IMG/VR virus record: IMGVR_UViG_3300044638_007036
Span: 18,096 to 82,095 of that record
Length of the DNA stretch: 64,000 bases
Direction: 5' to 3' (one strand)
Origin: a virus
Made by a program: the position numbers and the translations under genes. Positions 15,211-53,899 of the stretch are shown here, piece by piece; position 1 is the first letter of the stretch, and the number at the start of each line of letters is the position of its first letter. The notes below the pieces were generated by a model. It had not been told where the DNA came from, searched no databases, and saw nothing but the letters and a program-made list of their open reading frames with translations.

Positions 15211-15960
15211 TTAAGGCTCCAAGTTTCTTCTACCCTCTAAGTATTCCATAATTTTATCAGTATCTTGATTCTGTTCGATAAGAGGTTCTGTTAATAATGG
15301 ACATTTAGAAAGTTTAACTTTAAAAGAAAAAATAAAAGATTGTACGGTTTTTTCTACCAACCCATCTAAACTAGCATCACACTTCAAAGACACTACTTCA
15401 TCTGCAAATCTATCTTCGATAGCATTAGTACCAACAGCATAGTATTCATCTCTAATCAATTCCGCATAACTACTTTTAGTATACTTACCATTAGTACGAG
15501 AAATGACTTGCTCATCCATCTTTTCTACAAGATCGATTACGTGTTTTAATCTAGAACTAACCTGTTGTGGAATATCTCCTTGAAATCCTCCACTAGCTCT
15601 ATGAGACATTAACGTGGCATACTTTGTAACGTATCGTCTAGGACTATTTTGTAAGATGTGGAAACCCATACTCGCAGCATACTTAGCTATAGAAAATACA
15701 GGTCTTCTTAGTTTATTCATAAATTCAATTAAATCTAATCCAGCTAAAACACTTCCTCCCGGAGTATTGAGAATTAAATAGATAGGCTCATTAGTTTCTC
15801 CTTCCTTTGCTAAAGCGTTAAGCTCATGCATAACTTCCCCAACAGATTCTCTAGTTACTGGACCCCTTAGAGTCACTGTATTTTTACTGGTTAGTAGAAT
15901 TTCTTTTTCAGCAGCTAACAAATTAAAAGAAAGTAAAATTAAAAACAAAAACAGTTTCAT
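15211..15960 (-). CDS. Secreted ClpP-like serine protease
   Basis: 249 residues. A signal peptide (MKLFLFLILLSFNLLAAE) precedes a ClpP/crotonase-fold protease domain: NTPGGSVLAG at 65-74, nucleophile Ser97 in AASMGF, His120 in LMSHR, and Asp171 in IRDEYY, which line up as the Ser-His-Asp triad of ClpP. The C-terminal 60 residues are extra and unlike ClpP. The signal peptide places it in the periplasm or envelope, unlike cytoplasmic ClpP. It is directly next to a secreted metalloprotease-like gene and lysis-type genes. A role in degrading envelope proteins at lysis, or in blocking superinfection, is inference. Confidence 0.85.
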   Translation of the reverse strand: MKLFLFLILLSFNLLAAEKEILLTSKNTVTLRGPVTRESVGEVMHELNALAKEGETNEPIYLILNTPGGSVLAGLDLIEFMNKLRRPVFSIAKYAASMGFHILQNSPRRYVTKYATLMSHRASGGFQGDIPQQVSSRLKHVIDLVEKMDEQVISRTNGKYTKSSYAELIRDEYYAVGTNAIEDRFADEVVSLKCDASLDGLVEKTVQSFIFSFKVKLSKCPLLTEPLIEQNQDTDKIMEYLEGRRNLEP

Positions 15961-16463
15961 TATAACCCCTTAGGTATAAGCTGAAATTTATAAGGATTTG
16001 TAAATAATTCCCTATCATAAAATTCCTGCGTAGATTTATTATAACATCTTTGTGATGGTTCTATATAAGGATGCATTATGCTCATCGGACAATAAGTAGG
16101 GAAATCAAATGAATTTTCAACATGCTCTCTTCTTAGAAGACAGTGCCCCCATTCATGATATAACAGGAGTTTACGGCTATTATTATCTAAATATTGCCAA
16201 GACCTTCTAGAGATTACAACAAGATTGAGGTGTGGCATACAGTATCCCAATTGTCCTTGAGCAGTACTGTTGCTAAAAATAGTAACTAATCGATAGTAGT
16301 CTATTTTTACATCGTGCTTTTTTGAATCTTTGTCGAAGGATTTTGCGTAGTCTTGAAATTCTGGATCTATGTAGACAGGCTTATTAAAAACTTTACTATA
16401 GAATAAAGGAACAGCTAAAAAGCAGTTTAAAGTAAAAAAAGTTATAATCATAAGTCGTATCAC
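15960..16463 (-). CDS. Secreted metzincin-like zinc metallopeptidase
   Basis: 167 residues with an N-terminal signal or membrane segment (residues 4-22). The zinc site is LYHEWGHCLL, i.e. His103-Glu104-x-x-His107, with another His at 114, followed by SIMHPY, a Met-turn (Met130) as in metzincins. The third-ligand spacing is one residue longer than the strict HExxHxxGxxH. Four Cys residues suggest an oxidising, extracytoplasmic location. It overlaps the ClpP-like gene by one base (TAATG), so the two are coupled. A periplasmic protease role is inferred from motif and signal. Confidence 0.75.
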   Translation of the reverse strand: MIRLMIITFFTLNCFLAVPLFYSKVFNKPVYIDPEFQDYAKSFDKDSKKHDVKIDYYRLVTIFSNSTAQGQLGYCMPHLNLVVISRRSWQYLDNNSRKLLLYHEWGHCLLRREHVENSFDFPTYCPMSIMHPYIEPSQRCYNKSTQEFYDRELFTNPYKFQLIPKGL

Positions 16464-46948: not shown

Positions 46949-47153
46949 CTTCCGGCTCCCATGCAGTATCGAGTGTTCCTAATTTTTTTAAATAAGCGAA
47001 TGGAGGAAGCATCCCTTCTTTTTCTAAAGCTGATAAAATTCTTTCGTTTAAAGGGACAAATCCTTCTAAATTATCTAAATCTACTTTTACCCAATCATCC
47101 ACAAATTTTCCATAAGTATCATCAATAATTTTTAAAGCATCTTTTCTTTTCAT
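46938..47153 (-). CDS. Small acidic protein, unknown function
   Basis: 71 residues. VDLDNLEGFVPLNERILSAL then EKEGMLPPFAYLKKLG and an acidic end; small phage proteins of this type are common and of unknown function. Overlaps its neighbour by 11 bases. Confidence 0.6.
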   Translation of the reverse strand: MKRKDALKIIDDTYGKFVDDWVKVDLDNLEGFVPLNERILSALEKEGMLPPFAYLKKLGTLDTAWEPEDED

Positions 47154-47557
47154 TAAAAGTCCATTCTTAAAGCATGGGTTATTATTCCAACAGAAAAAAG
47201 ATTATCTATGGAAATATTTTTTGTTAATCTAATTCTATAGTCTAATCCAATAACTGGAGTTATTCCATTAAAAGAAGGAGGTTCAATTCCAATTTCTCTA
47301 AATTTTTTAAAATTAGTATTATATCCTCCGGCAATAAATTCTAAATTGTTTGCTAATTTAAAAGAACTTATAGGTCCGATTATAGATCCACAAGAAGAAT
47401 CCTTTCCAGAAATAACGCCCACTTTAGTTTTCTCTGTACCCACTAGACCAATAACATATTCATTATGTATAGTACCATAATTATTTAATCTTTTACAGTA
47501 TGGTAAATTACTTCCAATATAATGATGAGTAATACCCCCATATAAAATAGAAATCAT
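47153..47557 (-). CDS. Beta-strand-rich protein, outer-membrane-barrel-like
   Basis: 134 residues with alternating strands: LGGITHHYIGSN-like start, EYVIGLVGTEKTKVGVISG, LEFIAGGYNTN, PVIGLDYRIRLTK and a C-terminal SVGIITHALRMDF ending in Phe, as in small beta-barrels. No signal peptide is visible, so barrel formation is uncertain. Phage genomes often carry such lipid A-deacylase-like or acyltransferase-like small barrels. Role unknown. Confidence 0.5.
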   Translation of the reverse strand: MISILYGGITHHYIGSNLPYCKRLNNYGTIHNEYVIGLVGTEKTKVGVISGKDSSCGSIIGPISSFKLANNLEFIAGGYNTNFKKFREIGIEPPSFNGITPVIGLDYRIRLTKNISIDNLFSVGIITHALRMDF

Positions 47558-48108: not shown

Positions 48109-49035
48109 TTAAAATATCCAATTAGGTTTTTTATTGATTATAACAGAAGAATCTAGTATAAATTGAATAGGTTTTTGTTTCATGCTTGGTGCTTCAAATT
48201 GAGAGTCAATAAGAACTTCTTCTAACGTCCCCTGTAAACCTCGAGCACCTAATCCTTTAGCTAATGCGTTTATTGCTAAAAGTTCTATTGCGTCTGGCAT
48301 AACAATTAATTCTATTTTCTCAGTTTCAAACCATTCTCTAAAGGATAATAAAATAGAACCTTTTGATTCTATTAGGATTTTTTTAAAATCTTCGATTGTT
48401 AGCTCTGAAAGTTTTGTAATTATGGAAAATCTTCCAACTAATTCTGGAATCATTCCATATTTAATAATCTCGCTGGTTTCTGAATTTTCAAGTCCTACAA
48501 AAGCCCCAGAAGCTATGAATAGGATATTTTTTGTATTTAATTTTCTATCGTATGATGATCCAGATTGCCCGGAACTATAAGCAACGTCGCTACCCTCTAT
48601 TAGTTTTAGAAGAGCTTGCTGAACCCCCATTCCATTAACATCGTTATCTGTGTTTTTCTTTTTTAATTTATCTATTTCATCTAAATATATAATAGATTTT
48701 TCAGCCCGATCCTCATCTCCTTGGCAGACGTTGACCAATTCCGTTATCATATCCTCTACATTTCTACCCTCATATCCCGAAGCAGTCAATTGTGTACAGT
48801 CAATAGTAATAAAAGGAACGTCGAGTATTTCAGCAAGATTAGAAATCATATAGGTTTTACCACATCCTGTAGGACCTATGATCATTACGTTAGTTTTCTT
48901 AATCTTATCTCCTCGCATTCTTTTAAAATGATTATACCCCGCTACTGATAAATATTTTTTAGCCTGATCATGTCCGATAACATATTCATCTAACTTATTT
49001 TTTATACTTTCCGGAGTTTTTACTGTAGTTTTCAA
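48109..49035 (-). CDS. ClpX-like AAA+ unfoldase without zinc domain and ClpP loop
   Basis: 308 residues, versus about 420 for ClpX. It starts at the linker helix (LDEYVIGHDQAKKYLSVAGYNH), so the zinc-binding adaptor domain is missing. Walker A Gly54-Thr61 (GPTGCGKT), pore loop GYEG at 87-90 (ClpX GYVG), Walker B Asp119-Glu120 (IIYLDEIDK) and ARGLQG sensor-type segment are present. Between GAFVGLEN and GMIPELVGR only about seven residues remain where ClpX carries the IGF loop for docking ClpP. It would unfold proteins but not feed ClpP in the normal way. Confidence 0.85.
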   Translation of the reverse strand: MKTTVKTPESIKNKLDEYVIGHDQAKKYLSVAGYNHFKRMRGDKIKKTNVMIIGPTGCGKTYMISNLAEILDVPFITIDCTQLTASGYEGRNVEDMITELVNVCQGDEDRAEKSIIYLDEIDKLKKKNTDNDVNGMGVQQALLKLIEGSDVAYSSGQSGSSYDRKLNTKNILFIASGAFVGLENSETSEIIKYGMIPELVGRFSIITKLSELTIEDFKKILIESKGSILLSFREWFETEKIELIVMPDAIELLAINALAKGLGARGLQGTLEEVLIDSQFEAPSMKQKPIQFILDSSVIINKKPNWIF

Positions 49036-49226
49036 ATGTAATTATCTTCCTCTATGTCATCTATATATTTTTCCGTAATAGTTGGATATACTCCTAAATC
49101 TTCGTTATCAAGATATAGTTCATCCATGGCTTTTTCTACTTTCGAAATTGCCACATCTTCACTAGAATAAACTCCAACTATCACTGTATTCTCTAAATCT
49201 ACCAAAGAAGCAATATATACTTTCAT
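49032..49226 (-). CDS. Small acidic protein, unknown function
   Basis: 64 residues, acidic (SSEDVAISKVEKAMDELYLD). ATGA overlap with the ClpX-like gene, so co-translated with it and possibly an adaptor for it; that is speculation. Confidence 0.6.
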   Translation of the reverse strand: MKVYIASLVDLENTVIVGVYSSEDVAISKVEKAMDELYLDNEDLGVYPTITEKYIDDIEEDNYI

Positions 49227-52870: not shown

Positions 52871-53899
52871 TTAGGCTAACCGGATTTCTTTAGTTTTTCC
52901 AAAATGTTTTTTAAGCATTTTATTTTTATCTTCTATGATTTTAACACATTCTTTGAAAGTTTTTTCAGTTTTTTTATGAGCAAAACAAATTTCTCTAATA
53001 TCTACGATAGGCATATTTTCAGTAAGGGTTAGTTCTTCTTCTGATGCTTCTCTTTTTAAATAAAGATTAATTAGTTTTTTTCTTGCTACTACATTAGGAT
53101 ATTCTACTTTTACAAAAATATCAATTCTACCATTTCTGACAATATTTTCAGGAATAGATTCTGGATAGTTAGTAGATAAGAAATATATCGTATTAGATAA
53201 GGATTTTGAACCGTCTAAAAAATCTAACATCTCACGTATGTCATCGGATGATTCTAAAAGAGATACGGCTTCTTCAAAAACCACAATCTTTAACTTGTCT
53301 TTTGTAGAAGTTTCTAGTTTTTCTAAAAATTTACGAGAAGGAACTCCGTCCATAAAAATTACGATAGCATCTTTTTTACGAATAAACTCTCTCATATAAC
53401 TAGTTTTCCCACTTCCCGGAGGACCAAATAATAGTACTCCAAGTTTATAAGCAGAACAAGAATCTGTATACAATTGTTTGTTTTTTACAAATTGATCAAT
53501 TCCTTCATCCAAGTCTTTTAAGCTATCCATCAATTCTACATATTTATCTTCTCTAATTACCATTGGAGAAATTCTTTCTGGAACAGATGCGCTACCAAAT
53601 TCATGATAATAAATGCCATTTGGTAAAATTTGTGGTTCTGTTTGTGGAGTAGCTTTTTCGTATACTTCTACTAAGTTATTAGTAATTACTTCGTATGATT
53701 TTTCTGGATTTAAACTTTTAGCCATTTCCTGAGGAGTTTCGTAAAAACAAAGTTCATGTTTACTCTTAGTAAATGGACTAAGATAAAATCCAGTAGGTGT
53801 GTTAAATTTATACCAAACAAGTTCTAGTTCAGAAGTAGTGTTTTTTGAGTCTTCGTTTGCATTTTCTTCTTTTAGAATCTTATTTAGATTTAAAATCAT
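52871..53899 (-). CDS. AAA+ ATPase, Cdc48/ftsH-like core
   Basis: 342 residues. The N-terminal 145 residues are unlike known domains. Walker A is Gly159-Thr166 (GPPGSGKT); Walker B reads KIVVFEEA (Glu209/Glu210; the usual Asp is replaced by Glu). IYFLSTNYPESIPENIVRNGRIDIF is the sensor and arginine-finger region. A single AAA+ module, so probably a hexameric remodelling ATPase. Substrate unknown; some phages use such genes for host takeover or transcription control. Confidence 0.8.
   Translation of the reverse strand: MILNLNKILKEENANEDSKNTTSELELVWYKFNTPTGFYLSPFTKSKHELCFYETPQEMAKSLNPEKSYEVITNNLVEVYEKATPQTEPQILPNGIYYHEFGSASVPERISPMVIREDKYVELMDSLKDLDEGIDQFVKNKQLYTDSCSAYKLGVLLFGPPGSGKTSYMREFIRKKDAIVIFMDGVPSRKFLEKLETSTKDKLKIVVFEEAVSLLESSDDIREMLDFLDGSKSLSNTIYFLSTNYPESIPENIVRNGRIDIFVKVEYPNVVARKKLINLYLKREASEEELTLTENMPIVDIREICFAHKKTEKTFKECVKIIEDKNKMLKKHFGKTKEIRLA

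What the first reader, a model, noticed from the sequence alone, without database searches (positions are those of the whole stretch)
48109..49035. ClpX homologue without zinc domain and without the ClpP-docking loop
Seen: the protein starts at the AAA+ module, keeps Walker A/B and a GYEG pore loop, but only about seven residues lie between GAFVGLEN and GMIPELVGR where ClpX has its long IGF-loop insert. The RKH-type loop also seems changed (DRKLNTK). Inference: a ClpP-independent unfoldase, perhaps for disassembling host or phage complexes, or to compete for ClpX substrates. A 64-residue acidic gene overlaps its 5' side and could be an adaptor.
Basis: partly seen in the sequence, partly recalled or inferred. 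Interest (0 to 1): 0.65.

Follow-up and report, generated by a model that had tools for sequence, protein, structure and literature searches.

The report
Phage ClpX relative lacking ClpP-docking loop
This phage gene makes a protein-unfolding motor of the ClpX kind that has lost the parts bacteria use to hand proteins to a protease, and a whole phage-only family shares exactly the same losses, so it probably takes protein complexes apart rather than destroying them.

Summary
ORF 48109-49035 (-), 308 aa, is a complete ClpX-type AAA+ module with intact Walker A/B, pore-1 Tyr, arginine finger and sensor 2. It lacks the zinc-binding domain, the IGF (ClpP-docking) loop and the RKH loop; pore-2 is also shortened. 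This is not a quirk of one contig. A linker pattern and an independent C-terminal signature find the same phage clade: 28 IMG/VR stretches, 0 in 84,980 prokaryote genomes. Every member with the region has an 11-residue linker where loop-bearing ClpX proteins measured here have 37-48. The clade has 100/100 support once the very distant small phage family is left out. The gene is under strong purifying selection (dN/dS 0.03), and the AlphaFold model matches ClpX (TM 0.87). The window also encodes a ClpP-like protein 33 kb away, but it has a signal peptide, and the two genes occur without each other in many contigs, so it is not the obvious partner. Best explanation: a stand-alone, ClpP-uncoupled unfoldase/remodeller; its target is unknown. 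The adaptor idea for the 64-aa gene is weak. ClpP independence is inferred, not tested. Verdict: new, phage-only variant of a known kind (ClpX).

The parts
48109..49035 (-). Loopless, zinc-domain-less ClpX-family AAA+ protein, 308 aa, TTG start
48853..48876 (-). Walker A, GPTGCGKT (aa 54-61)
   Evidence: alignment; GP[TS]G[CS]GKT in all 17 complete members aligned
48766..48777 (-). Pore-1 loop GYEG (aa 87-90), Tyr invariant in the family
48676..48693 (-). Walker B, IIYLDE (aa 115-120)
48631..48663 (-). Shortened pore-2 loop (aa 125-135), four residues fewer than E. coli ClpX
48532..48573 (-). Region where ClpX has the RKH loop (aa 155-168); RKH absent
48457..48483 (-). Nine-residue linker SETSEIIKY (aa 185-193) in place of the IGF loop; 33 residues fewer than E. 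coli ClpX
48430..48432 (-). Arginine finger R202 (ELVGR)
48235..48249 (-). Sensor-2 GARGL (aa 263-267), start of the C-terminal family signature
49032..49226 (-). 64-aa acidic protein, 4-nt overlap with the ClpX-like start; weak DUF7336/phrog_3002 similarity; conserved next to the gene in only a few relatives
15211..15960 (-). ClpP-like serine protease with signal peptide, considered and rejected as the partner

Best explanation
It is a stand-alone ATP-driven protein unfoldase/remodeller, derived from or sister to ClpX and, as far as the collections show, used only by phages. Shown by sequence: a full ClpX AAA+ module with the ATPase and pore residues conserved across the clade; no ClpP-docking loop, RKH loop or zinc-binding domain in any complete member; strong purifying selection. 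Inferred: it forms a hexamer like ClpX, threads substrates through the GYxG pore, and releases them unfolded or disassembled instead of passing them to a protease. Without the zinc-binding domain and RKH loop it should not read ssrA tags or the usual ClpX adaptors, so it probably recognises its own substrate or substrates, most likely a phage nucleoprotein or assembly complex, as host ClpX does for the Mu transposase complex without ClpP.
For: Best-scoring named families are ClpX models (NF003745 296 bits, TIGR00382 272, HslU 185). Model pLDDT 85.8, pTM 0.82, with ClpX chains as top PDB matches, TMq 0.87 for the first. All members with the region have an 11-residue linker after GAFxxL against 37-48 in the loop-bearing ClpX measured. 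Two independent signatures give 19 and 28 viral stretches but none in 84,980 prokaryote genomes. Loopless clade 100/100 once the distant small family is excluded. dN/dS 0.028 for window against L002. Jumbo-phage ClpX proteins keep an IGF-like loop, so loss is not a general phage trait. Literature: IGF loops make most ClpP contacts and are critical for binding (PMC7112951); a loop-mutant E. coli ClpX still remodels Mu transposase (PMC5603545); larger pore-2 changes also weaken ClpP binding (PMC10638403). No HslV/proteasome peptidase in 16 family contigs.
Against: No biochemistry. A ClpP-like gene with a signal peptide is co-encoded in 16 of 28 family contigs and lies within about 2 kb upstream of the unfoldase in one subgroup. 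A loop-independent docking mode cannot be excluded by sequence. Gene neighbours vary between subgroups (replication/nucleotide genes, structural genes on the other strand, small genes), so they name no substrate.
Confidence: 0.68

Rival explanations
1. It acts with a protease through a different contact: either the phage's own ClpP-like protein or a host peptidase, for example by its hydrophobic C-terminal end in the way HslU docks to HslV.
For: A ClpP-like gene with Ser and His of the triad kept is in the window and in most longer family contigs. Many members end in a hydrophobic KPxW[IV][FY] tail.
Against: The ClpP-like protein of the window and its kin starts with a signal peptide and keeps two Cys (194, 220), as expected of a periplasmic protein. 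IGF-cleft positions (residue list recalled, not looked up) are poorly kept. 24 other exported-ClpP contigs, several over 100 kb, carry no such unfoldase (one weak partial AAA hit only), and 12 of 28 family contigs have no exported ClpP. The C-terminal tail matches the last strand of ordinary ClpX (KPLLIY) and is not terminal in L051, L149, L150, L152 and L154.
Confidence: 0.12
2. It poisons host ClpXP: loopless subunits mix into host ClpX hexamers (or occupy its substrates) and uncouple them from ClpP, protecting phage proteins from degradation.
For: About 40% identity to bacterial ClpX over the full AAA+ module with interface motifs kept; six IGF loops normally dock together on ClpP (PMC10638403), so a mixed ring should bind more weakly.
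Against: Invariant catalytic and pore residues across the clade suggest it works as a motor itself; mixing at 40% identity is unproven; no host is known to compare with.
Confidence: 0.12
3. It is an inactive or decaying ClpX copy.
For: Three accessory elements are missing.
Against: Intact motor motifs in all members, dN/dS 0.03-0.05, wide distribution.
Confidence: 0.02

Closest known systems
Bacterial ClpX (TIGR00382 / NF003745) and jumbo-phage ClpX (phage G gp258, Atu_ph07 gp2, PA5oct, Phosso, Lak)
   Same: Same AAA+ large and small domains, Walker A/B, GYxG pore, arginine finger, GARGL sensor 2; 38-45% identity
   Different: Those keep an IGF-like loop, nearly all keep the zinc domain and most the RKH loop; the window clade has none of the three
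Small ClpX-like AAA+ of Schitoviridae and other phages (phrog_5534; PEV2 gp31, phi50-12, R7M, M4H10_20, MA9V-3), annotated ClpX or even 'ClpP-like protease'
   Same: Also without ZBD, RKH and IGF, 250-285 aa
   Different: Far more divergent (24-31% over part of the protein), N-terminal VIGQ helix missing, pore tyrosine mostly lost; joined by a very long branch
ClpIb of Actinomycetota (PMC10149685) and ClpB
   Same: Clp/Hsp100 unfoldases without a ClpP-docking loop, held to be independent unfoldases
   Different: Two AAA+ modules, ClpC/ClpB type, bacterial; the present one is a single-module ClpX type, found only in phages. That paper calls ClpI the only Clp group known to exist with and without the motif; this clade would be a second case
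Yeast mitochondrial ClpX (Mcx1)
   Same: ClpX-type unfoldase that activates a client (ALAS) by partial unfolding (PMC7077987)
   Different: Mitochondrial; the absence of ClpP and of the docking loop in yeast is recalled, not tested here
HslU
   Same: No IGF loop, short GAF-to-IPE segment
   Different: HslU has a large I-domain and docks to HslV; 185 bits against 296 for ClpX, and no I-domain here

Membership tests
ClpX (equivalog) | AAA+ module with Walker A/B, pore-1 GYxG, arginine finger, sensor-2 GARGL | tested here: met
ClpX (equivalog) | ClpX fold | tested here: met
   AlphaFold model against PDB, ClpX chains first, TMq 0.87
ClpX (equivalog) | Score above curated cut-off of NF003745 (359) or TIGR00382 (370.75) | tested here: not met
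   296 and 272 bits
ClpX (equivalog) | N-terminal C4 zinc-binding domain | tested here: not met
ClpX (equivalog) | IGF-type ClpP-docking loop | tested here: not met
ClpX (equivalog) | RKH loop | tested here: not met
ClpX (equivalog) | Binds ClpP and feeds it substrates | not testable with these tools
   needs purified proteins
HslU | I-domain between Walker A and Walker B | tested here: not met
HslU | Score above TIGR00390 cut-off (362) | tested here: not met
   185 bits
Loopless phage ClpX clade (this report) | 11-residue GAFxxL-to-GxxPE linker and GARGL[HQ]..QFxxP signature | tested here: met
Small phage ClpX-like family phrog_5534 | Groups with these rather than with ClpX | tested here: not met
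   97 bits against 277 for phrog_4339; the seven small ones form their own clade 100/100
ClpXP partner pair | Co-encoded cytosolic ClpP | tested here: not met
   the only ClpP-like gene of the 82-kb contig has a signal peptide; the contig may be incomplete

The most novel reading that the evidence does not exclude
A phage-only class of ClpX-family motors that completely lacks every part known to be needed for work with ClpP, and serves as a dedicated disassembly machine (or uncoupler of host ClpXP) with its own substrates; this would be a second Clp unfoldase group known both with and without the docking motif, and the first of ClpX type.
Probability: 0.45. Interest if true: 0.65.

Novelty: new variant of a known kind. 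Interest (0 to 1): 0.52.

Why it matters
ClpX is the textbook case of a motor that both degrades (with ClpP) and remodels (without it), and the two jobs are hard to separate in cells. A natural clade with the motor kept and the docking part removed is a ready-made remodelling-only ClpX. Finding its substrate would show which step of a phage cycle needs protein unfolding without destruction, and whether phages build or sabotage such machines.

Tried and rejected
Displaced loop: no extra segment in the alignment or model. Sequencing error or single-contig quirk: 28 viral stretches with the same linker. Decay: dN/dS about 0.03. Phage ClpP as partner: exported, and the two genes are found apart. 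HslV-type partner: none in 16 contigs. C-terminal docking tail: it is the last strand of normal ClpX and is not terminal in five members. Upstream small gene as a conserved adaptor: not conserved across the clade. Function from gene context: neighbours differ too much. First linker pattern was off by one base and found nothing. Deep placement of the clade (nested in ClpX or sister to it): unresolved; loop-bearing ClpX as one clade is not rejected (p-AU 0.36), so loss against primitive absence is open. With the very long-branched small family included, monophyly of the loopless clade was unresolved. Host: the terminase has one distant GenBank phage match, linked to Silvanigrella, and the DNA polymerase is nearest to a Flavobacterium phage; not decided. 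No paper on such a phage protein was found.

Full report
The gene. ORF 48109-49035 on the minus strand encodes 308 aa from a TTG start; an in-frame TAA lies three codons upstream, so no zinc domain can be encoded ahead of it in frame. Pfam sees AAA_2 and AAA. Among NCBIfam models it scores best with ClpX (296 and 272 bits) but below both curated cut-offs, and much lower with HslU (185 bits). Solved relatives are ClpX chains, E. coli first, E about 1e-67.

What is missing. Aligned with E. coli ClpX and phage ClpX proteins, the window protein lacks the zinc-binding domain and a 33-residue block holding IGF; nine residues (SETSEIIKY) remain between GLEN and GMIPE. The RKH loop is replaced by a shorter stretch without RKH, and pore-2 is four residues shorter. 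The RK in DRKLNTK is not the RKH motif. Walker A, Walker B, the pore-1 tyrosine, the arginine finger and sensor 2 are all in place. AlphaFold gives pLDDT 85.8 and pTM 0.82, and Foldseek puts ClpX chains first with TMq 0.87. No displaced loop is seen.

A phage-only clade. A DNA pattern for the short linker found 19 IMG/VR stretches and none in 84,980 bacterial and archaeal species genomes. An alignment-based scan found further close members (L046, L050, L051), with identity then falling sharply from 57-74% to about 40%, where ordinary ClpX proteins begin. A second signature taken from the C-terminal region, independent of the linker, matched all 27 family loci held and none of the other 118 loci. 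It found 28 viral stretches and no prokaryote genome. All of them with the region have an 11-residue linker after GAFxxL, as does the window. In 62 loop-bearing ClpX proteins measured the same stretch is 37-48 residues; of the 12 that the expression missed, six print a loop by eye and six could not be read this way. One caveat: both patterns demand exact matches, so diverged cellular members could be missed. With the distant small phage family left out, the clade has support 100/100. With that family included, the deep branches were unresolved. Whether the clade lies inside ClpX or beside it is not settled (p-AU 0.36). dN/dS is 0.028 (window against L002) and 0.046 (L036 against L030).

ClpP question. 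The same contig encodes one ClpP-like protein (window 15211-15960). Ser and His of the triad are kept and the third member is Asp or Glu (the alignment is unsure by one residue there). It starts with a clear signal peptide, as do its relatives, and two cysteines are invariant, so it should act outside the cytoplasm. In one subgroup it sits three to four genes upstream of the unfoldase. Exported ClpP occurs in 16 of the 28 family contigs, window included, while 24 other exported-ClpP contigs carry no such unfoldase (one weak partial AAA hit). The exported protein is nearly absent from GenBank phages. The association looks like shared lineage or host rather than an obligate pair. No proteasome-type peptidase was found in 16 contigs.

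The 64-aa gene. It overlaps by 4 nt and is under purifying selection between window and L002, but is found next to the unfoldase in only three independent contigs; six others have an unrelated 63-aa gene there. It has weak similarity to DUF7336/phrog_3002. Adaptor function is possible but unsupported.

Mechanism. Shown: the parts list, its conservation and selection. From the literature: the IGF loops make most ClpP contacts and are critical for binding (PMC7112951); loop-mutant E. coli ClpX keeps Mu transposase remodelling (PMC5603545); the RKH loop takes part in ssrA binding, and larger pore-2 changes weaken ClpP binding (PMC10638403). Inferred: a hexameric unfoldase that works without a protease and with different substrate rules. 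Neighbouring genes differ between subgroups (ribonucleotide reductase and an AAA protein in the window; DnaB-type helicase and an exonuclease-domain protein in L046; helicase and portal in L051; head and tail genes on the other strand in L035 and L045), so no target can be named.

Known comparisons. Jumbo-phage ClpX proteins keep the loop, and a survey of jumbo phages mentions ClpX only as a possible translocase or assembly factor (PMC7824862). Small ClpX-like ATPases of Schitoviridae and others also lack the loop but are far more divergent. ClpIb in Actinomycetota lacks the docking motif and is thought to be an independent unfoldase; its authors knew no other Clp group with and without the motif (PMC10149685). 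The window clade would be a second such case, of ClpX type. I file it as a new variant of the ClpX kind, not as ClpX proper, because curated cut-offs and three defining features are not met.

Noticed in passing
window 15211-15960 (-): Exported ClpP-like serine protease (signal peptide, two invariant Cys); relatives in about 113 IMG/VR stretches but only one distant match in 50,697 GenBank phage records.
   Followed up: partly
window 15960-16463 (-): Protein with signal-like N-terminus and HEWGH motif, possible exported zinc metallopeptidase, directly beside the ClpP-like gene; no Pfam or PHROG match.
   Followed up: no
L129 (ORF 1459-2958, -): ClpP-like protein of a family contig (that of L031) that seems to be interrupted by an intein-like insert ending in ...VAVHNC.
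   Followed up: no
L007 (Lak-A1 ClpX): ClpX of Prevotella phage Lak-A1 carries an insert of about 300 residues at Walker B ending ...VTGNC, intein-like; absent from Lak-B1.
   Followed up: no
L051 1391-4036 (-): Helicase gene beside a loopless ClpX member holds Hint and LAGLIDADG homing endonuclease domains.
   Followed up: no
L031 8055-8408: One family member has a different N-terminal extension of about 118 aa with no convincing family match, perhaps a substrate-binding domain in place of the zinc domain.
   Followed up: no
L020 (Ochrobactrum phage ZX86) and other small phage AAA+ records: Loopless ClpX-like ATPases are annotated 'ClpP-like protease' or 'Clp protease' in public phage records; likely misannotation.
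   Followed up: partly
window 47153-47557 (-): 134-aa protein near the unfoldase looks like a small outer-membrane beta-barrel (ends in Phe); conserved in ten family loci, no family match for itself or its L048 relative.
   Followed up: no
window 52871-53899 (-): Second AAA+ protein (342 aa, weak FtsH/PAN-like matches), also present next to the L002 and L049/L028 members.
   Followed up: no
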